Shown: positions 26,778 to 40,255 of the stretch, piece after piece | Numbering within the stretch: the first letter of the stretch is position 1 | How the letters are laid out: each line of letters starts with the position of its first letter | From: Spirochaetota bacterium | GTDB lineage: Bacteria; Spirochaetota; Spirochaetia; Treponematales; Rectinemataceae | Assembly (NCBI GenBank): GCA_029265615.1 | Contig: JAJUIB010000008.1 | Location: 1 to 40,255 of the forward strand | DNA: 40,255 nt | Reading direction: 5' to 3' | The notes under the pieces: model-generated | Database searches by the model: none | What the model saw: the letters and a program-made list of their open reading frames with translations, nothing else | What the model was told of the DNA's origin: nothing | Translations under genes and position numbers: made by a program

Positions 26778-27773
26778 TCAGAACCCGGAAAGCGCCCTGC
26801 CGTCAAGGATGGCGGCGGGCTGGACCTCGGCCGCAAGAAGGCCACGGCTCCGCATCCATGCGACGACCGCGCGGACATCCGCCTCTGAGGGAAGACGCGG
26901 CTTTTCGTAGCGCACGAAGCGGTAGCTGTCTTTGACCTCGGCGGGGAATCCCGCCTTGTCGACGAGGAAGGGGCGGTACTTCGCCGGGTCCGCGTTGATT
27001 CTGGCGGCCGCGGTGGCATAGGCGCGATAGAAGGCCGTGATGTCGGCAAGGCGCGTATCGAGCGACTTTTTCGTAAAGAGAAGAACGCCGGCGCGAAGCC
27101 CCGCGTCGTCGCTCGCCGCGACCAATCGGGCGCCGCGGGCCTGGGCCGCTGAAAGGAGCGGCTCGGGGAGGCAGGCTGCCTTGAGCTGGCCCGTGAGGAG
27201 GAGCTCCATACGCACCGGAATCTTCGGCACGGGCAGGCCTTTTATCTCGGCGACAGGGACGCCCGCTGCAAAGAGCAGGGAATGCGTTGCATACTCGATG
27301 ATCGTGTTCGAGGAGATGCCCACCTCGACGCCGCGAAGCTGCTCAGGCTTATCGAGGCCCGATCCGGGAGCGGTCACGATGCCGTAGCGGCCGTCGGTGA
27401 GGCTTGTCACGCGCAGCTCGAAGCCACCCTGCACCGCGAGCGCCGCGGCGAGAAGGTCGGAGATGACGCCGTCGACCGCTCCTGACTGGAGCGCCGCGTC
27501 GCGTTCGACCGCCGCCTTAAAGGTCACAAGTTCAACGCGCGCGCCTTCCTTCGCGAAGAGGCCCTCAGCCTCGGCGACGAGGAGGGGCAGGGAGTCCGCA
27601 TCGGGGAGGATGCCGACTCTGAGGATGGCGCTCGAGGGGGCAGCGCTCGAGGGGGCAGCGCTCGAGGGGGCGGCGCCCGAGGGGGCGGCGCCCGAGGGGG
27701 CGGCGCCCGAGGGGGCGGCGGCGACCGCACCGACAAGCAGGCAGAGCGCGGCGGCCTTGGCGTAGAGCTTCAT
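26778..27773 (-). CDS. NMT1/THI5-like ABC substrate-binding protein with repeat linker
   Basis: A 331-residue periplasmic binding protein of the SsuA/NMT1 class (nitrate, sulfonate, thiamine-pyrimidine group). A signal peptide (residues 1-20) is followed by six near-identical five-residue units (APSGA x3, APSSA x3; 21-49), then the folded body beginning LRVGILPDADSLPLLVAEAEGLF. No lipobox is seen; the repeat may be a flexible spacer. Start: ATG 27773, with AAGGAG seven bases upstream, overlapping the UbiX stop (ATGA). Position inside a quinone-synthesis operon suggests that the ligand is an aromatic or naphthoate-like precursor, but a cofactor such as a pyrimidine is also possible. Confidence 0.85.
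   Translation of the reverse strand: MKLYAKAAALCLLVGAVAAAPSGAAPSGAAPSGAAPSSAAPSSAAPSSAILRVGILPDADSLPLLVAEAEGLFAKEGARVELVTFKAAVERDAALQSGAVDGVISDLLAAALAVQGGFELRVTSLTDGRYGIVTAPGSGLDKPEQLRGVEVGISSNTIIEYATHSLLFAAGVPVAEIKGLPVPKIPVRMELLLTGQLKAACLPEPLLSAAQARGARLVAASDDAGLRAGVLLFTKKSLDTRLADITAFYRAYATAAARINADPAKYRPFLVDKAGFPAEVKDSYRFVRYEKPRLPSEADVRAVVAWMRSRGLLAAEVQPAAILDGRALSGF
27631..27720. repeat. 15-bp minisatellite, six units, inside the binding-protein gene
   Basis: Six tandem 15-bp units occupy 27631-27720. Three begin CTCGAGGGGGC and three CCCGAGGGGGC. Because 15 is a multiple of three, gain or loss of units changes only the linker length and keeps the frame. Confidence 0.95.
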
Positions 27774-31026: not shown

Positions 31027-34000
31027 ATGTCGAGGAGTCGGTATACCCAGTGGGCGAAGTCGCAGGCGACCCGTGTGGGGGGGCTTATGGCCGCTTCGCT
31101 CCTCCTTGCAACCTGCGACCTTGCCAAGGTGGGCCTTGGCAGCAAGGTGGACATAACGCCGCCTGCCCTCGCGATCACCTCGCCTGCGAACGGCGCCTTC
31201 ATTTCAGAAAAAAGCCTTACGGTGCGCGGCACCGCCTCGGACGATCTTGCCCTCGATTCGGTGCGTGTCCTTGTCGATGGACAGAGCTATCCCGCCGCGG
31301 TTAAGGAGGGTGAGTGGACGGTATCCATTCCCGTGGGGACGGAGGCGGGAGCGGTGGCCGAGGGCGAAAAGACGCTCACCGTCATTGCCCAGGATGCCTC
31401 AGGAAAAGAAGACCGGCGCTCGGTCCGCTTTACCGTGGACACGAAGCCGCCCTTTGTGCTTGTGTCTGTGCCCCAGGGCTATGGCAGTTCCGCAGGAACC
31501 TATTCGAGCTACATCGACTTCGGCGGTGAGGTCTGGGACCCCTCGCCGCTCGACAAGGTCGAGGTTATCGTCGCCGACAAAGACGGGAAGGAGATAAAGC
31601 GCAAGGAGGCACAAGGGACGACTAGCTGGTCGGTGCGCTTCAATATCGGTCAGGGCGAAGACCTTCCCTGGGGCAAGGACGAGAGCGGAACAAGCTATAC
31701 CTTCACCGTCATGGCGCGCGACCGCGCTGGCAATACGAATAACTATGTTTATCACGCGCAAGACGTCTGGGCCCTCATGGGGACGTACAAGATCGAGCGG
31801 TTCCCGGTGACGAGCGAACTTGGGGCCATGGATCAGGAAGAACGCAATGCCCAACTTCCCGATTTACAGGGGCTTTTGTTTACTGACTTGAAGGACAAGC
31901 GGCTTCCCTGCGACGAGAAAAAACTCGGCTTCACATACGACGTTGACGGGACGCGTCCCCAAATCACGCTCACCAATCTTGATGCTAGTAAGCCGGTTAC
32001 CGCCAACGTGCTTGGCTCCAAGACGCCTATTCTCGGCTTTGTCGCGCCTGGGCCGGCGGGCAACGCGGTCGATGGCGCATCGATCAGGGCCACAGTCACG
32101 CCGCTTGGGTCGCAAGACGCGACGGTCAAGAGCCTCCCTGTCGTCGTCACGTCGATGGGCACGGTTTTTAATTTCACCTTCGCGCTTAAAGCGGGCGACA
32201 CCTTTCTAGGCAACGGCCGGTACCACCTTAGGATGGAGGCGAGTGCAAAGGGCGGCTCCCCGGCTCTTCCGACAGAACTCGACTTTCTCATCGACAACAC
32301 GATTCCGCAGTTTGTGCGTCTTATCCCCGCCGATGAAGGCTACGCATCGCGTATCGATCTTGCAGGCGGCAAGGGGAAGGGCGTGCGGATAGAGCTCGTC
32401 GTAAGCGACGACAACGACACGACCGACGGCATTGAAGGATCAAAGCTTGTCAACGTCACCGCGCGCGGGGCAAAGGATGGCGCGGCAATCGAGGGTGTGA
32501 GCTTTACCCCGGGCGAGGTGCTTTCCGAGGCGGGAAGCCGCATTGGCCGGCGCTGGGTGGTCGAGGTGCCGTATGCGTTCGGGACCGACCTCTATTTTGA
32601 TTACGAAGCCCGCGATGCAAGCGGCGCCACGGCGCGGCGCACACATCATGTCGTCATCGACGAGGAAGCTCCTACCCTCACCATCAGCGAGCCGCCCGCC
32701 GCGCCCCTGCCCGTGGGTGCGTTCCTCTCTGGCGATTCCTTCATTTTCCGCGGCACTGCCCTTGATGCACAGAGCGGCGTGACGGAAGTGCGCTATTGGC
32801 TTGGCGCGCGCGATGGGAGTGATCGCCCCAAGAAATTTGAGTACTGGAAGTCTGCCTCTGGCGCCGCTTCGTGGAGCGCAACGGAGGATTTGAAGGCTCT
32901 TTCCGAGGGGGCAAAACTTTTTTCCGCATGGGCAAAAGACGCGGCAGGCAACCTGAGCGAGATTGCGACACAGGCGTTTACCTATGACCGGACAAGCCCG
33001 GTGGCGAGTATTGCGGCTGGTAGCACGGCGAAGGGGTATGAAGAGTCAGGGGTAACGTACCGCGAGGAGAGTTTTACGCTCTCAGGGGAGTGCGACGACG
33101 ATGCAGTGACGGTAGGGCGGCGAGCGGTGGCGGCGAAGCTCACGGTGAAAAAAGACGGGGGTGGAGCGACCGAGCTTGTGTTTAGTGAAGGCGGGGTTTC
33201 GACGGGGGCGTGGAGCTACACGCAGAGCGTGAATAGGACGACGCACGCGGACGACGGGCTCTATGAGTATGTGCTCACGGTGACGGATGAGGCAGGGCGG
33301 ACGAGCACGGCGACAAAGACGGTGAGGATCGACACGAGTGCGCCGGTTATCGAGGTGCGGGCGCCAGCGCCGAACGAGCCGACGGATCAGGCGAACTATA
33401 CGCTGCGGGGTTCGGCCTACGACACAGGCTCGGGGCTTCTTGTTGGGAGCCTTGTGTATGTGCTCAATGGTGGCGAGGAAAAGCCCCTGTCGCTCATAGG
33501 GCAGACCTGGACGGCTGACGCGACACTTGGGAGTGAAGGGGCGTGCCAGCTTGTGGTGAAGGGGCGGGACCTACTTGGGAACGCGTACACAAGCGATGTG
33601 GTGACGTTCTACTACGACAAGGCGAATCCTGCGCTTACCGAAACAGCGGTGGGAGAGGACACGAAGCTCACGAACGGGGGCTTTGAGCTTCATGGGTCAG
33701 CGAGTGACACGAACGCGCTTTCTAGCCTTGTGGTGAGCGTGACAAAGAACGATGTAGCGGTAAAGAGCTGGGCTCCTGTGGCATTGAGCGGGAAGAGCGC
33801 GAATTGGGCGCATGCGGTTGCGCTTACGGACCTTGTGGGAGACGGGAGCTATGTGTTCACGGTGACGGTGCGTGATATAGCGGGCAGAACGAGCTCGCTA
33901 CAGCGCATAGTCAAGGTGGATACGACGAAGCCTGAGGTTACGGGGATGAACCTTGGGAACAACGAGCTTGTGCGGAGCGCGAGCTACACGGTGCTGGGGA

Positions 34001-37000
34001 GCGCGGCGGACACTGGCTCCGGGGTTGCGCGGATAGAGTACAGCGTTGATGGCACAAGCTGGCACGGAGGTACGGGAGGTGCGGACTGGAGTGTTGCGCT
34101 TTCCGGTCTCACGGATGGGCTTACGAAGAAGTTTTTTGTGCGTGCGATCGACGGTGCGGGAAATGTGGGGGATGCGTATGAGCGGAGCTATCGCGTTGAC
34201 CTTGCGGACCCCGCAGTGAGTGTGACGGGGCTTACGGAAGGCGAGACCGGGTATCGGAACAGTGATGTGGCGCTCGAAGGCAGTGCGACGGATGGGAACG
34301 GTATCAAAGCGCTGAGTGTGAGCTATATAAAGAGCGGTGGGGGTACTGGTGTGCTTTCGACCGCACTTCCCGACGGTACAGGTAAGTGGAGTGCGACGCT
34401 CCCCGTGTCGCTGGGGAACGGGTCGTACACGCTTACGGTGATGGCGACAGATAAAGCGGATCAGACGAGCACGGTGCGGCGAACGGTGGTGATCGACGTG
34501 GCGCCGCCGGTCCTCGAGGTAAAGACGCCGAGTGGGCTTGTGGAAACGCAGAAGGTAAGGCTCTCAGGCACGGTAGAGGACAACCTTGGGGGCAAGGGCG
34601 TATCGAGCCTAGAATACAGCCTGGACAGTAGCGATGGCGAAAACGGCAGCTGGGTGGCGGTGACGCTTACTGGCTACACGTGGGTGGTCGAGGACGTGGA
34701 CACTGGTGCGCAGGAAGGCGAAAAGTCGCTGTGGGTGCGTGCGAGCGACGGGCTTAACGCGGCGACGAAGAAGAAGGTGACGTTCACGTACGACAAGGCT
34801 GACCCGGTTTTGAGCGAGACGGGCTCGGGGCTTACTGCCGATCAGGCGATCAAGAAGGAGGCGGTGAGCTTTGGCGGTTCGGTGAGCGATACGAACGGGA
34901 TTAAAAAGCTCGAAGTGAGCGTAAACGGAGCTTCTCCGCAGGCGATCACGACAAGTGTCGGGGCGTGGAACTGGACGCTCCCTGCGACGCAGGATGGGGA
35001 GTACAAGCTTGTCTTCACCGCCGAAGATGTGGCGGGACGTAAGGCGACGCTGTCGCGGTGGGTGCTCCTTGATACGGAAAAGCCAACGACGCCGGTGATA
35101 AAGTCGAGTCCTGGGGCATTTGTGCAGAAGGACCTTGTGGTAAACGGGGAGACGAGCGACGCGACAAGCGGCGTTGCGACGGTGTACTACCGGATTGATG
35201 ACAAGGACGCCGGGACCCTTGCGGGGACGAGTTCGTGGTTTGGGACGATCGATCTTTCGGTGGAGAAAGACGGGGTAAAGGTCTACGCCGAGGGGATGCA
35301 TACGCTCAAGGTGTGGGCGGAAGACCGCGCAGGCAACCTGAGCGAGGTTGCGACACAGGCGTTTATCATCGACCGCGCCGATCCTAGCCTTTCGGTAGAT
35401 GCGGCTTACGATGGCATTGTGTTCAAAAATAGCCCCTTTTCCATCGACATCGCCGTTTCCGACACCTACGCGCTAGGAGCTGCGCCGCTTACCGTCACAC
35501 TATCGGTTAACGGAAGCGTCAAGACACTCGACCCACCGGTGATCCAATCTGGAGCGGGGAGCGCCTTCCAGGTATGGCGGCAAACGGTGCCCATCGGCTT
35601 TGGCGACGGGCTCTACGTCGTGACGATAGACGCCAAAGACAGCGTCGACCGACCCGCGCAGTCCATACAGCGGAGCATCACCGTCGATACGACACAGCCG
35701 ACCGCGCTCATTTCCGCGCTCTCGCCTATACTTGCGGGCAACGTTGTAAACGGTAAGATTACGCTCAATGCGAATGTAAGCGATGCTAACGGGCTTTGGG
35801 GGGTCAAATACTTTGTCCGCCCCGCCTCGGGCCTACCCGTCTACGACGATGGTGACGGCCAGCCTCTTCTTGCACCCTACGCTGCGACGATCGACACCTC
35901 CGCGATGAGCGGCACGATGTATCTCTACATCGTTGCCCGTGACAAGGCGGGCAACGAAAGCGGCCACCTTGCGACGGTCGAGGTGAACCAGGCTTCCGAT
36001 GTGCCCGTAGCTACGATTGAAAGCCCATCGCCCGGCGACGCGATCGGCGCCGACAAGCGCGCCCGCGGCACCTTTATGGATGACGATGGCGTTGCTTCGG
36101 GCGCCGCCATCCTCTATGTGAAAAAATCAAGCGATGGCAACTATACCGCGTTCCCCATCGCGGCTTCGAGTGCGCCTACCCAGCTTGTGTCCTGGTCGGT
36201 CGATCTTTCGACCTTCCTCTCTGAAAAGGGCGATGGCATCTACAGCATGTACTTCCGCGTGATGGACGATGCGAGTAAAAAGTCGGGACTTGCAGAACGC
36301 TTTATCGAGACCGCGGTGCAGACCTTTACCTGGGACAACAACCCGCCCACGGTCTCGGCGAGCATCGCAAAGGCTCCGGTAAAACCTGCGTACAAGGCGG
36401 GGGACGAGGTGACCTTCTCCTGGACCGCAAGCGACGCCTCGGGCATAAGCTCGCAAACGGTCGAGGTTGACGGCGCGCAGAGCGGCCTCGGCGCAATAGC
36501 TTCCGCGGCTTTGGACTTCAGTGTCGTCTACACGGTTCCGGCTAACGCCATCTCGGGGAACAAGATATTCACGCTCGTCGTCACCGACGCGACGGGCCGT
36601 TCGACGACCCGCACCGCGAGCATCACCGTCGATACTGCCTCGCCGAGCGTCGAGCCAGCCTTTGCGCTCGATCCGGGATTCGTCGGATTCACGCCGAACG
36701 GCGCTTTCTCCATACGAGGCACGGCTTCCGATAACCGCGCGCTTTCCAAGGTGCAGATCAAGCTGACAGGCTCTGGCGGCGGCCAAAATCTCGACTGGAC
36801 CGACGCAAGCCTTTCAAACGGTAGCTGGAGTTATGCGATCGCCGACAGCACGACGTATGTGCCGACTTCGGGAAATCTCGGCATCGAGCTCCGTGCGGTC
36901 GACGAGGCGGGCAATGTGAGCCCCATCCAGAGCTTCAGCCAGTTCGTCGATCAGGCTGCCGACAAGCCGACGGTCACGGTCATAAGCCCGGTCGGAGGCA

Positions 37001-40000
37001 CGACCTACGGCACGACGGTACAGATATCCGGCACTGCCGCCGACGATGACGGCCTTGCCGATTTCGACAACAATGGCGTCATCGATTCCGATGCGATCGT
37101 AATCGAATACTGGAATACCGCGAGCCCGGGCACAACGTACACGCGGTATCCTGTTATAAGCGGCACGGGAAAGAGCGCCACGTGGAACTACAGTCTTACG
37201 AGTCTTTCAGGCGGAGATTACGCGGTCCGCGTGCGCGCGAAGGATGACGCAGGAAAGCTCGGCGATTGGAGCGCCGAGACGACTTTCACCGTGGATGCGG
37301 GAAGCCCCAATCTCATCGTGACAAGCGCCATTCAGGCCTTCATCAATAACGGGAACCTTGTGATTTCGGGGACGGCCGAGGATTCGGGCGGGATTAAGTA
37401 CGTGCACGCCCGTGTGAATGGCGGCGCCTGGGTGCTTGCAAGCGCACTCGGTATGACCGACATGGACGCAAACGGCGTCTGGGACAGCCTTGCGACTGGC
37501 GTGGTGAACTGGTCGATCAGCCTTAATCTCGGCACGGACGGCTTTAAGACCATTGAGATCGAGGCTGCCGACAATAACGATCTTGTCGCCACCGCCCAGC
37601 GGAGCACCACGCTCGACACGACGGCGCCTTCGGGAAGCTTCGATGCGCAGTTCCGCGACCATCCGAGCGGCTCCTTCCTCGCAACGACGCTTCTCAACAA
37701 GACGGTGCGCATAACGGGCACGGTGACGGAGCTCAACCTCCGCGACACGAATCCCGTGGAGATTTCGATCGAGGACGGGGTCAACAACGCGTGGGCGCCC
37801 GTCACCGGAACCTTCGTCTGGAGCCATGTATGGGAGACGAAGGACCTTCCCGACGGGAACTACACGATCAGGCTCAGGATCACGGACAAGGCTGGTAACG
37901 TCACCGACGCCATTATGAAGACGGTGAGCACCAAGCAGTCGGCGGATGTGCCGCTCATCACCCAGGCCTTTGTTGATGCGCCTAACTCCGCCTCGGCGGG
38001 GAATAACGTCCTCGGCGCGGTGCTCAAGATATCGGGCACAATCAGCGATGACGACGGATTCCTTTCGGGCGCGGTGGGCGCCCTTCTCGACGGGACGACG
38101 ACGGTGATGCCGACGAACACGAGCGGTACGACGGGCACCTGGGAATACGTGTGGACGAGCCTTCCTGCGGGCGAACACTATATTTCCATCACCGCGACGG
38201 ACCGGAACGGGGCCACAAGGAGCATCGGACCCACGTATTTTATCGTCGACAACGCGAATCCGCTTTTGTCGCTCTCGACACCGGCTTCAGGTGCACGGCT
38301 TAAGGCGGGTAGCCTCGTCATCGCCGGGACCGCCTCGGACGATGGCGGCTTTGGCGCGACACCCCTTTCCCTGACGTTCAGGCACTCCGACACGAGTTCG
38401 AGCCTGCACAACAAGGTCTATACGCCGGCGGTTTCAGGCGGTGTTTTCACGCTGTCTATTGATATCGACGGCGCGGTGAAGGACGGAACCCTCTACATGG
38501 ATCTTGTCCTCTCAGACCGCGCGGGCAGGCAAAGCTCCGTGACGCGCGCCGTGACTATCGATACGACGGCTCCCTCGCTTTCGCTCAACTACCCGAGCCA
38601 TGCCGCGTACATCAACGGGCTTGTCTCCGTGACGGGCACGGCCGATGACCTCAACGGCCTTGAGGATGTGAGTCTGCAGGTCCTCTCTCCCGTGACGAAG
38701 CTACCGATTGCAAGCCTTACGAGGAGTAGCGCCACGCTCGCGGCTTGGGAGTTCCCCTTCAATGCTGAAACCTACGCGTCGACCACCTACGCAGTCGACG
38801 TAAACGGCGACCAGAAGCTCTGGAAGGTCTTCTTCCGCCTCGCGGCGACCGACAGAGCGGGCAACGTCGCTGAGTACAAGGTTGGCGATCCCCTCGACTG
38901 GCCGTATTTCTTCATCGACACCGACGGCGACAAGCCCACGATCTCCGTGACCCAGCCCAAGAACGGTGACAAGATCGGCGGCTTTGTGAACATGTTCGGC
39001 ACGGCGACCGACGACGACGGTCCGGTCATGCAGGTCGAAGCACGCATCGACTTCAACGGTGACGGAGACTTCCTCGACAGCCGCGATCTTGACGGCGACG
39101 GTACCGTCCAGCTCGGCACCTCCGTCGATATACTCGGTACGACGGTGAAGATCGGTGATGCGGCACACAAGTGGGAGGACGAGTCCGCCTGGTACGTCAT
39201 CCCGGTCAGCAACAATGCCTGGACGCAGGAGCTTAACTCGAACGGCGAGCTCTACGAGTCGAACACCGGCGGCACCGGGACTATCACGATTCAGGTGCGA
39301 AGCCGCGACAAGTTCGGCCTTGCAAGCGAGGTGTCGAGCCGCAGCATCATCCTCGACCAGACATTCCCGCGGATCGAGAACGCCGCGCCGCTTGACCAGA
39401 GTTACCAGAGCGGCACCTTTACGCTCACGGCCGAATTCGGCGACAACATCGACCTCAACCTTTCCTCGATCTCGCAGATCAAGATCAACATCAATAAGAC
39501 GGGTTACCAGACCCTGAGCGCGGGACCAAACACGGGCGCGGGGCATCCCTACGCACTCACTGCCGACCTTGGAAATCCGCAGCACGGGTACGACCTCGCC
39601 TTCCCCATCAATACCAACACGTATTTCAATAACAGTTCGGGCATCCTCTACGTCGATCTCTACGTCAAGGACGAGTCCGGCTACGTGAACCAGAAGACGC
39701 TCACCTACTATGTGGACAACCAGGCGCCGAGCTCCTCCTGGTCGACGAGTACGACGCGCCCGGATGGCGCGAACCTGCGTAACGGCATGATCAGCGTGAA
39801 CGGCGTGCCCAAGACCTATGTCGAAGGTAACTACGGCGATTCGGGTTCCGTGAGCGGCATTTCGCGGATCGAGGCCTACTTCGTTAAGTCGGGAGCGCTA
39901 CGTGCGCTCAAGACGAGCGGGACCTACGGATGGGCCCTTCCGACCGAGTCCGCCGCCATCGAGACCTACAACCTCGCGACGAATACCTGGACTCCGGGCA

Positions 40001-40255
40001 CCGATCCAGCAAGCCCCTTCGCGACGCATGCGGCGCTTGGTGACAACTACGTTATCAAGGTGGACAAGGCCAGCGAGATGAGCGACCTCGGCATCGGTAC
40101 GGACATTGACGGCGACGGATACCACGAGTACCTCGGTATCTATGAGGGCGCGGCGCGCTGGCGGGCTTACTTCGACAGCCTGTATCTCCCTGACGGCCTC
40201 GCCGACCTCCACTATGTGGTCTACGACCTCGCCGGTAACCGTGTCCATCGCGTGC
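31027..40255 (+). CDS. Giant Ig-like-repeat lipoprotein, 3' end outside window
   Basis: An uninterrupted frame of more than 3,070 codons from ATG 31027, still open at the window edge, with a very strong ribosome-binding site. Residues 17-30 form a lipoprotein-type signal (GGLMAASLLLATC), with C30 as probable lipidation site; Thr at -1 is unusual but spirochaetal lipoboxes are relaxed. The rest is about 26 repeats of 85-130 residues, each of bacterial Ig-like layout: a (V/I)DxxxP start, then xGTAxDDxGL, a G-x-W strand, G-x-Y and DxAGN. Examples of repeat starts lie at 31438, 32662, 33328, 35683, 36627, 38557 and 39352. Several Asp-rich calcium loops occur. It is probably exported and surface-exposed, acting as adhesin, glycan binder or structural filament; the function is not established. 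Confidence 0.9.
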   Translation, partial: MSRSRYTQWAKSQATRVGGLMAASLLLATCDLAKVGLGSKVDITPPALAITSPANGAFISEKSLTVRGTASDDLALDSVRVLVDGQSYPAAVKEGEWTVSIPVGTEAGAVAEGEKTLTVIAQDASGKEDRRSVRFTVDTKPPFVLVSVPQGYGSSAGTYSSYIDFGGEVWDPSPLDKVEVIVADKDGKEIKRKEAQGTTSWSVRFNIGQGEDLPWGKDESGTSYTFTVMARDRAGNTNNYVYHAQDVWALMGTYKIERFPVTSELGAMDQEERNAQLPDLQGLLFTDLKDKRLPCDEKKLGFTYDVDGTRPQITLTNLDASKPVTANVLGSKTPILGFVAPGPAGNAVDGASIRATVTPLGSQDATVKSLPVVVTSMGTVFNFTFALKAGDTFLGNGRYHLRMEASAKGGSPALPTELDFLIDNTIPQFVRLIPADEGYASRIDLAGGKGKGVRIELVVSDDNDTTDGIEGSKLVNVTARGAKDGAAIEGVSFTPGEVLSEAGSRIGRRWVVEVPYAFGTDLYFDYEARDASGATARRTHHVVIDEEAPTLTISEPPAAPLPVGAFLSGDSFIFRGTALDAQSGVTEVRYWLGARDGSDRPKKFEYWKSASGAASWSATEDLKALSEGAKLFSAWAKDAAGNLSEIATQAFTYDRTSPVASIAAGSTAKGYEESGVTYREESFTLSGECDDDAVTVGRRAVAAKLTVKKDGGGATELVFSEGGVSTGAWSYTQSVNRTTHADDGLYEYVLTVTDEAGRTSTATKTVRIDTSAPVIEVRAPAPNEPTDQANYTLRGSAYDTGSGLLVGSLVYVLNGGEEKPLSLIGQTWTADATLGSEGACQLVVKGRDLLGNAYTSDVVTFYYDKANPALTETAVGEDTKLTNGGFELHGSASDTNALSSLVVSVTKNDVAVKSWAPVALSGKSANWAHAVALTDLVGDGSYVFTVTVRDIAGRTSSLQRIVKVDTTKPEVTGMNLGNNELVRSASYTVLGSAADTGSGVARIEYSVDGTSWHGGTGGADWSVALSGLTDGLTKKFFVRAIDGAGNVGDAYERSYRVDLADPAVSVTGLTEGETGYRNSDVALEGSATDGNGIKALSVSYIKSGGGTGVLSTALPDGTGKWSATLPVSLGNGSYTLTVMATDKADQTSTVRRTVVIDVAPPVLEVKTPSGLVETQKVRLSGTVEDNLGGKGVSSLEYSLDSSDGENGSWVAVTLTGYTWVVEDVDTGAQEGEKSLWVRASDGLNAATKKKVTFTYDKADPVLSETGSGLTADQAIKKEAVSFGGSVSDTNGIKKLEVSVNGASPQAITTSVGAWNWTLPATQDGEYKLVFTAEDVAGRKATLSRWVLLDTEKPTTPVIKSSPGAFVQKDLVVNGETSDATSGVATVYYRIDDKDAGTLAGTSSWFGTIDLSVEKDGVKVYAEGMHTLKVWAEDRAGNLSEVATQAFIIDRADPSLSVDAAYDGIVFKNSPFSIDIAVSDTYALGAAPLTVTLSVNGSVKTLDPPVIQSGAGSAFQVWRQTVPIGFGDGLYVVTIDAKDSVDRPAQSIQRSITVDTTQPTALISALSPILAGNVVNGKITLNANVSDANGLWGVKYFVRPASGLPVYDDGDGQPLLAPYAATIDTSAMSGTMYLYIVARDKAGNESGHLATVEVNQASDVPVATIESPSPGDAIGADKRARGTFMDDDGVASGAAILYVKKSSDGNYTAFPIAASSAPTQLVSWSVDLSTFLSEKGDGIYSMYFRVMDDASKKSGLAERFIETAVQTFTWDNNPPTVSASIAKAPVKPAYKAGDEVTFSWTASDASGISSQTVEVDGAQSGLGAIASAALDFSVVYTVPANAISGNKIFTLVVTDATGRSTTRTASITVDTASPSVEPAFALDPGFVGFTPNGAFSIRGTASDNRALSKVQIKLTGSGGGQNLDWTDASLSNGSWSYAIADSTTYVPTSGNLGIELRAVDEAGNVSPIQSFSQFVDQAADKPTVTVISPVGGTTYGTTVQISGTAADDDGLADFDNNGVIDSDAIVIEYWNTASPGTTYTRYPVISGTGKSATWNYSLTSLSGGDYAVRVRAKDDAGKLGDWSAETTFTVDAGSPNLIVTSAIQAFINNGNLVISGTAEDSGGIKYVHARVNGGAWVLASALGMTDMDANGVWDSLATGVVNWSISLNLGTDGFKTIEIEAADNNDLVATAQRSTTLDTTAPSGSFDAQFRDHPSGSFLATTLLNKTVRITGTVTELNLRDTNPVEISIEDGVNNAWAPVTGTFVWSHVWETKDLPDGNYTIRLRITDKAGNVTDAIMKTVSTKQSADVPLITQAFVDAPNSASAGNNVLGAVLKISGTISDDDGFLSGAVGALLDGTTTVMPTNTSGTTGTWEYVWTSLPAGEHYISITATDRNGATRSIGPTYFIVDNANPLLSLSTPASGARLKAGSLVIAGTASDDGGFGATPLSLTFRHSDTSSSLHNKVYTPAVSGGVFTLSIDIDGAVKDGTLYMDLVLSDRAGRQSSVTRAVTIDTTAPSLSLNYPSHAAYINGLVSVTGTADDLNGLEDVSLQVLSPVTKLPIASLTRSSATLAAWEFPFNAETYASTTYAVDVNGDQKLWKVFFRLAATDRAGNVAEYKVGDPLDWPYFFIDTDGDKPTISVTQPKNGDKIGGFVNMFGTATDDDGPVMQVEARIDFNGDGDFLDSRDLDGDGTVQLGTSVDILGTTVKIGDAAHKWEDESAWYVIPVSNNAWTQELNSNGELYESNTGGTGTITIQVRSRDKFGLASEVSSRSIILDQTFPRIENAAPLDQSYQSGTFTLTAEFGDNIDLNLSSISQIKININKTGYQTLSAGPNTGAGHPYALTADLGNPQHGYDLAFPINTNTYFNNSSGILYVDLYVKDESGYVNQKTLTYYVDNQAPSSSWSTSTTRPDGANLRNGMISVNGVPKTYVEGNYGDSGSVSGISRIEAYFVKSGALRALKTSGTYGWALPTESAAIETYNLATNTWTPGTDPASPFATHAALGDNYVIKVDKASEMSDLGIGTDIDGDGYHEYLGIYEGAARWRAYFDSLYLPDGLADLHYVVYDLAGNRVHRV
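32944..32980 (+). repeat. 37-bp direct repeat, left copy
   Basis: This copy encodes AGNLSEIATQAF. It matches 35329-35365 at 36 of 37 bases (ATT against GTT is the only difference), and looser similarity extends about 15 bases upstream. It marks the left edge of a block with different codon usage. Confidence 0.9.
33328..35067 (+). repeat. Two-domain higher-order repeat, three copies
   Basis: Two Ig-like domain types alternate. Type A starts at 33328, 33916 and 34492 and carries D(T/N)GSG- or DNLGGKG-like loops. Type B starts at 33613, 34195 and 34789 and carries DTNAL, DGNGI or DTNGI. Like types recur every 576-594 bp, so the unit of duplication was a domain pair of about 193 residues. Confidence 0.7.
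35329..35365 (+). repeat. 37-bp direct repeat, right copy
   Basis: This copy encodes AGNLSEVATQAF. It lies 2,385 bp (exactly 795 codons) after the left copy, so recombination between the two would delete or duplicate the block in frame. It marks the right edge of the atypical block. Confidence 0.9.

What the first reader, a model, noticed from the sequence alone, without database searches (positions are those of the whole stretch)
32944..35365. A 2.4-kb in-frame block with foreign codon usage, flanked by 37-bp direct repeats, inside the giant lipoprotein gene
Between the two nearly identical 37-bp repeats the gene switches from codons ending mainly in C (GGC, GTC, ACC, GCC) to codons ending mainly in G (GGG, GTG, ACG, GCG). 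It switches back right after the second repeat. The block is exactly 795 codons long, so it can be gained or lost without breaking the frame. This looks like a cassette acquired or amplified by homologous recombination, a plausible route to surface-antigen variation.
Basis: partly seen in the sequence, partly recalled or inferred. Interest (0 to 1): 0.78.

Follow-up and report, generated by a model that had tools for sequence, protein, structure and literature searches.

The report
Codon-swapped segment in giant lipoprotein gene
A 2.4-kb stretch of a giant surface-protein gene in an uncultured spirochaete uses G where the rest of the gene uses C at silent sites; the stretch is an ordinary part of this recombination-prone gene, probably not foreign DNA, yet the same silent swap appears in the same gene family in four other spirochaete genera and its cause is unknown.

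Summary
The gene runs 31027-42798 (3,923 aa). At four-fold sites C falls from 0.41 to 0.11 and G rises from 0.37 to 0.66 between 32.99 and 35.28 kb (delta logL 80, permutations at most 15). Both steps lie at a 36/37-bp direct repeat whose DNA identity is not explained by protein conservation (0 of 20,000 simulations). None of about 240 sampled genes of the genome looks like this.

"Foreign" is not supported. The segment is an array of Ig-like domains present at the same place in relatives. Apart from C versus G, codon use stays in the host's dialect. The same swap, each time in the host's own dialect, occurs in this gene family in four other genera; in one species two paralogous arrays of a single gene differ by it.

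The gene is a recombinational mosaic: N-terminus, block and C-terminus have different nearest relatives, and one relative carries a tandem 584-codon duplication of the array. I read the block as one recombining module of a modular surface lipoprotein. Exchange at the repeat is inferred; strain data were not available. mRNA structure, G-quadruplexes, tRNA choice and (in one species) ongoing C-to-G mutation do not account for the swap.

The parts
31027..40255 (+). giant modular lipoprotein gene (continues to contig position 42798; 3923 aa): lipobox-like N-terminus (LLATC), Ig-like (Big) domain arrays, conserved C-terminal tail
   Evidence: ORF; Pfam Big_13 / Big_7, 9 stretches each; lipobox seen directly in the translation
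31027..32943 (+). N-terminal arrays; closest relative G002 (same family, about 38-40%)
32944..32980 (+). left copy of the 37-bp direct repeat, in the tail (AGNLSEIATQAF) of a weak OmpL47-type / Ig-like domain
32981..35328 (+). G-for-C swapped segment: roughly eight Ig-like domains, four-fold sites G .66 C .11
   Evidence: number of domains estimated from length and Pfam stretches
35329..35365 (+). right copy of the 37-bp direct repeat, in the tail of an OmpL47-type domain (44.4 bits, cut-off 40)
35366..40255 (+). C-terminal arrays; from about residue 1550 (35.7 kb) on 50-77% identical to the homologue in G032, a different family

Best explanation
The block is a resident module, an array of roughly eight Ig-like domains, of a giant modular spirochaete surface lipoprotein that evolves by segmental recombination and duplication of domain arrays. 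The array was probably exchanged as a unit by homologous recombination at the shared 37-bp domain-tail sequence. The partner would be an allele or paralogue that already used the same codon dialect (same or nearby lineage) and already carried the G-for-C swap. The swap is a separate property that has appeared repeatedly in arrays of this gene family, in each host's own dialect; what causes it is not known. Shown: the step, the repeat, coincidence of edges and repeats, homologous arrays in relatives, host-like dialect, recurrence in four other genera, mosaic ancestry, array duplication in relatives. Inferred: that a recombination event at the 37-bp repeat made these edges, and who the partner was.
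For: Edges fall at the only DNA-level long repeat of the gene. Relatives carry homologous arrays at the same place, e.g. G008 38% over 755 aa, G003 33% over 739 aa, also G018 and G194. Different segments have different nearest relatives: N-terminus G002; block G194 / G008 / G018; from residue 1550 on G032 at 50-77%, although G002 and G003 are closer by ribosomal protein L13 (80-82% against 76%). Array duplication in relatives: G194 has a tandem 584-codon duplication of the homologous array, 89% DNA identity; G018 has two paralogous arrays 52% identical in one gene, one swapped and one not (36 G/C against 7 C/G at conserved four-fold sites); Brucepastera (G379) has two loci sharing a 93%-identical 5' block and a 92%-identical later part. 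Dialect: leaving out C/G, each swapped segment is nearest to its own flanks in 5 of 5 genes (margin small for G005 and G018). Swap: G:C odds ratio 7.5 here and 3.7-4.1 in G018, G157, G379a, G005, with 4-fold T:A not significantly different from 1.
Against: No pair of strains with and without the block, so exchange at the repeat is not observed. The swapped segments in G018, G157 and G379a are not flanked by such repeats. The two domains that end in the repeat are otherwise only about 22-33% identical, so the repeat could be a short conversion tract unrelated to the codon step. Host-like dialect could also be partial amelioration of older foreign DNA.
Confidence: 0.5

Rival explanations
1. In-situ change: a strand-asymmetric process (mutation, or selection acting on nucleotides rather than on tRNAs) replaces C by G at silent sites within bounded arrays of this gene; no import is needed.
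For: G:C shift in every four-fold box (2.4-11x here) whatever the tRNA set, and for every next base, on top of host baselines, with no T:A or two-fold C:T change here. Recurs in 5 genera in each host's dialect. Homologous codons are G in swapped and C in unswapped arrays: G018 against G008 73:17, this block against G008 52:8, against G032 48:9; control, own C-terminal part against G032, 105:70.
Against: Edges here coincide with a repeat, which mutation or selection does not predict. A 93%-identical paralogue pair in G379 shows only 4 C/G differences among 55 at four-fold sites, so no ongoing excess of C-to-G mutation there. Position of the swapped segment differs between genera. Non-synonymous skew shifts are inconsistent between species.
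Confidence: 0.27
2. Foreign cassette: the block came from a distant donor with G-ending codon preference.
For: Sharp edges at direct repeats; codon use beyond all sampled host genes.
Against: Leu CTT, A/T share and two-fold boxes are host-like; nearest codon profile is its own flank. Homologous arrays are present in relatives. None of about 40 homologous genes examined has such usage outside its swapped segment. Nothing close in phages, plasmids or viral contigs.
Confidence: 0.15
3. Founder relic: the array grew by duplication of one G-rich seed domain and kept its codon bias.
For: Domains inside the block resemble each other (up to 44%).
Against: At identical residues, domains of the block share codons no more often than block codon use predicts (0.447 observed, 0.461 expected), so no memory of a common seed remains.
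Confidence: 0.05
4. Assembly chimera joining two organisms.
For: The genome is a draft in 47 contigs, and array regions coincide with contig ends in some relatives.
Against: Intact 3,923-codon frame; the longest exact match in the repeat is 18 bp, short for a misjoin; the same pattern occurs in a single-contig genome (Brucepastera) and in other assemblies.
Confidence: 0.03

Closest known systems
OmpL47-type domain surface proteins (NCBIfam NF047446 / NF047441, Leptospira OmpL47)
   Same: spirochaete surface protein; the domain ending in the right repeat matches NF047446 above its cut-off
   Different: whole-protein OmpL47 equivalog model far below cut-off (60 against 250 bits); the present gene is a 3,923-aa Ig-like array
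Giant Ig-like repeat adhesins (Ca_tandemer NF033510, Big_13/Big_7 arrays; Leptospira Lig proteins, from general knowledge)
   Same: tandem Ig-like domains on a surface-anchored protein, array duplication
   Different: segment-confined C/G swap at silent sites; no report of such a thing turned up in the titles and abstracts of the searches made
Antigenic-variation cassette systems (silent copies recombined into an expressed locus; from general knowledge)
   Same: in-frame block bounded by short homology
   Different: no silent copies found in the genome by DNA or protein search
Mosaic genes from intragenic recombination (e.g. Campylobacter introgression, PMC3139442, abstract only)
   Same: segments of one gene with different nearest relatives
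   Different: here codon dialect stays host-like while only C/G at four-fold sites differs

Membership tests
Ig-like (Big) repeat surface lipoprotein | multiple Big domains above curated cut-off | tested here: met
   Big_13 188.5 bits (cut-off 27), Big_7 185.1 (24.1); block alone Big_13 103.9
Ig-like (Big) repeat surface lipoprotein | lipoprotein signal and surface location | tested here: inconclusive
   lipobox-like LLATC near the N-terminus in the translation; location not testable
OmpL47 (NF047441 equivalog) | whole-protein score over cut-off 250 | tested here: not met
   60.3 bits
OmpL47-type domain (NF047446) | domain score over cut-off 40 | tested here: met
   right-hand domain 44.4 bits; left-hand domain only 26.5, below cut-off
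Ca2+-stabilised repeat adhesin (NF033510 Ca_tandemer) | score over cut-off 50 | tested here: met
   101.4 bits on the window part of the protein
Antigenic-variation cassette system | silent donor copies in the genome | tested here: not met
   DNA search finds only the block itself; protein matches lie only in this gene and its neighbour
Antigenic-variation cassette system | variation between strains or cells | not testable with these tools
   one genome per species held
Horizontally acquired foreign cassette | codon profile unlike the host in general | tested here: not met
   only C/G at four-fold sites differs clearly

The most novel reading that the evidence does not exclude
An unrecognised, strand-asymmetric process acts on bounded arrays of giant Ig-like surface genes in several spirochaete lineages, exchanging C for G at silent sites (and little else) independently in each host, so that one gene can carry swapped and unswapped copies of the same array.
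Probability: 0.27. Interest if true: 0.7.

Novelty: new variant of a known kind. Interest (0 to 1): 0.45.

Why it matters
Sharp codon-use steps are routinely read as foreign DNA. Here the step keeps the host dialect in almost everything except C versus G, and it recurs in other genera and even between paralogous arrays of one gene. That warns against the usual inference and points to a silent-site process without a known cause. It also documents how very large spirochaete surface proteins are assembled from exchangeable, duplicable domain arrays.

Tried and rejected
tRNA-driven codon choice: not the sole cause, because NNT does not fall with NNC and NNA does not rise with NNG, and all boxes shift. 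Lower mRNA structure: block -51.1 kcal/mol per 150 nt against -50.9 and -47.5 in flanks. G-quadruplexes: none of the G3 type, and the G2 type is rarer than in codon-shuffled versions (16.6 against 27.0 per kb). Overlapping gene: other frames have stops; longest antisense open stretch 255 codons, over part of the block only. Founder effect. Ongoing excess of C-to-G mutation, tested in the G379 paralogue pair: not seen. Flanking repeats as a general feature of swapped segments: not seen. Donor in phages, plasmids, viral contigs: only 24-28% matches to Ig-domain proteins. First genome-contig scan found nothing. A self-BLAST script returned nothing and was replaced by pairwise alignment. The L13 comparison failed at first and was redone.

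Full report
The gene. The window ends inside an open frame that starts at 31027 and stops at contig position 42798, 3,923 codons. It begins with a lipobox-like signal and consists of Ig-like domain arrays (Big_13, Big_7, nine stretches each in the window part), with a conserved C-terminal tail of about 230 residues that no Pfam model matches. A second giant Ig-like gene lies just downstream, in the frame 43876-50973. Named homologues are Spirochaetales MAGs, Treponema and Brucepastera parasyntrophica; contig lengths identify G032 with JAFGNN010000050.1, G003 with JANYKC010000054.1 and G379 with Brucepastera.

The observation. Both repeats and the codon step are real. The two 37-mers match at 36 positions and are 795 codons apart; they occur nowhere else in the genome. 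The DNA identity exceeds what the shared peptide requires: resampling synonymous codons gave a mean of 27.9 and never 36 in 20,000 trials. A two-breakpoint likelihood model finds the step at 32989 and 35279, with intervals that contain the left repeat and overlap the right one. The block is far outside sampled genes of the genome.

What changes and what does not. At four-fold sites C and G trade places and A and T stay constant. In two-fold boxes C:T (odds ratio 0.76, interval 0.54-1.06) and G:A (0.98, 0.55-1.76) do not change significantly. Leu stays CTT-rich (0.53 in the block, 0.54 and 0.38 in flanks). The G:C shift is 2.4 to 11-fold in each four-fold box and is seen whatever the next base. 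This is not the profile of a different genome; it is close to the host's profile with one exchange. Two small departures remain: more ATA among Ile codons and more AGT among Ser codons.

Recurrence. In about 40 homologous giant genes, four others have the same kind of segment: G018 (codons 911-1826, same family), G157 (1563-2018), G379a (90-772, Brucepastera) and G005 (from about codon 760 to its contig end); G002 has a weak one. In G018 and G005 the place is roughly homologous to the present block; in G157 and G379a it is elsewhere in the gene. In three of the four, G also gains on A, so the swap is purest in the present gene. Leaving out C/G, each segment's codon profile is nearest to its own flanks (clear for own, G157 and G379a, small margin for G018 and G005). 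Background genes in G018, G157 and G379 (182 genes) have no comparable whole-gene value, and only one ORF, of unchecked reality, reaches 0.5 in a 100-codon window.

Codon-by-codon comparison. At conserved residues with four-fold codons the swapped array has G where the unswapped homologue has C: G018 against G008 73 against 17 the other way, own block against G008 52:8, against G032 48:9, against G194 36:8. The control, the unswapped C-terminal part of own against G032, gives 105:70. Within the single G018 gene, swapped and unswapped paralogous arrays (52% aa identity) give 36:7. Hence paralogous arrays in one gene and one genome can differ in this one property.

Mosaic history. Residues 1-650 are closest to G002 (about 38-40%), the block to G194 / G008 / G018, and residues from about 1550 on are 50-77% identical to G032, a member of another family, although ribosomal protein L13 places G002 and G003 closer. 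Between the block's right edge (1441) and residue 1550 the G032 identity is still low, so the third segment starts about 100 residues after the repeat, not at it. Within the genus, G001 keeps 86% in the tail but only 37% in the N-terminal part. G194 has a tandem 584-codon duplication of the array homologous to the block. In Brucepastera two loci share a 5' block at 93% DNA identity and a later part at 92%, with a different middle. Exchange and duplication of arrays is therefore normal in this family, and the block's homologues show that it is not an insertion into a gene that lacked it.

Mechanism. The edge-repeat coincidence is best explained by recombination at a conserved domain tail, i.e. 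the block moved or was exchanged as a unit; this is inference. The host-like dialect says the partner was in the same or a nearby lineage, or that the block has been resident long enough to converge in everything but C/G, which is harder to imagine. Why arrays acquire the swap is open. mRNA structure, G-quadruplexes, tRNA choice, founder effect and, in one recent paralogue pair, ongoing C-to-G mutation were tested and do not account for it. In that pair G sites changed less often (19 of 211) than non-G sites (36 of 121), compatible with a composition at equilibrium, but the number of C/G changes (4) is too small to exclude slow decay.

Limits. Background genes come from simple ORF calls in about 340 kb of the 2.7-Mb genome. 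Breakpoints in the other genera were found by the same model but with fewer controls. The statement that no report of such a swap was found rests on a handful of full-text searches in an open-access library, read at the level of titles and abstracts.

Noticed in passing
L091 (G194:C1:1429657-1433778, minus): Tandem 584-codon duplication of the array homologous to the block, 89% DNA identity, inside an open 4,995-aa frame.
   Followed up: partly
L185 (G379:C1:2072161-2074205) and L095: Brucepastera carries a second, 95%-identical (aa) copy of the swapped 5' block whose frame is interrupted after about 443 codons; the two loci share ends and differ in the middle.
   Followed up: partly
G000:C31:43876-50973: Second giant gene (2,365-aa frame) downstream, with Ig-like domains; giant frames of about 2,350-2,470 aa lie near the homologue in several relatives.
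   Followed up: partly
L107 (G157), codons about 2100-2400: A segment with the opposite bias (G-C down to -0.75) follows the G-rich segment.
   Followed up: no
L130 (JAFGPQ010000180.1): A 55%-identical homologue whose contig ends at own residue 1463, about 20 residues after the right repeat; G005 also ends inside its swapped array.
   Followed up: no
window 27627-27720: 6.3 copies of a 15-bp unit (GGCGCCCGAGGGGGC), 96% matches.
   Followed up: no
L041 (G018), gene codons 684 and 1352: Best DNA repeat of that gene (34/36) has one copy at an internal step from G-rich to neutral codon use; its offset of 668 codons is about the offset of the two paralogous arrays.
   Followed up: partly
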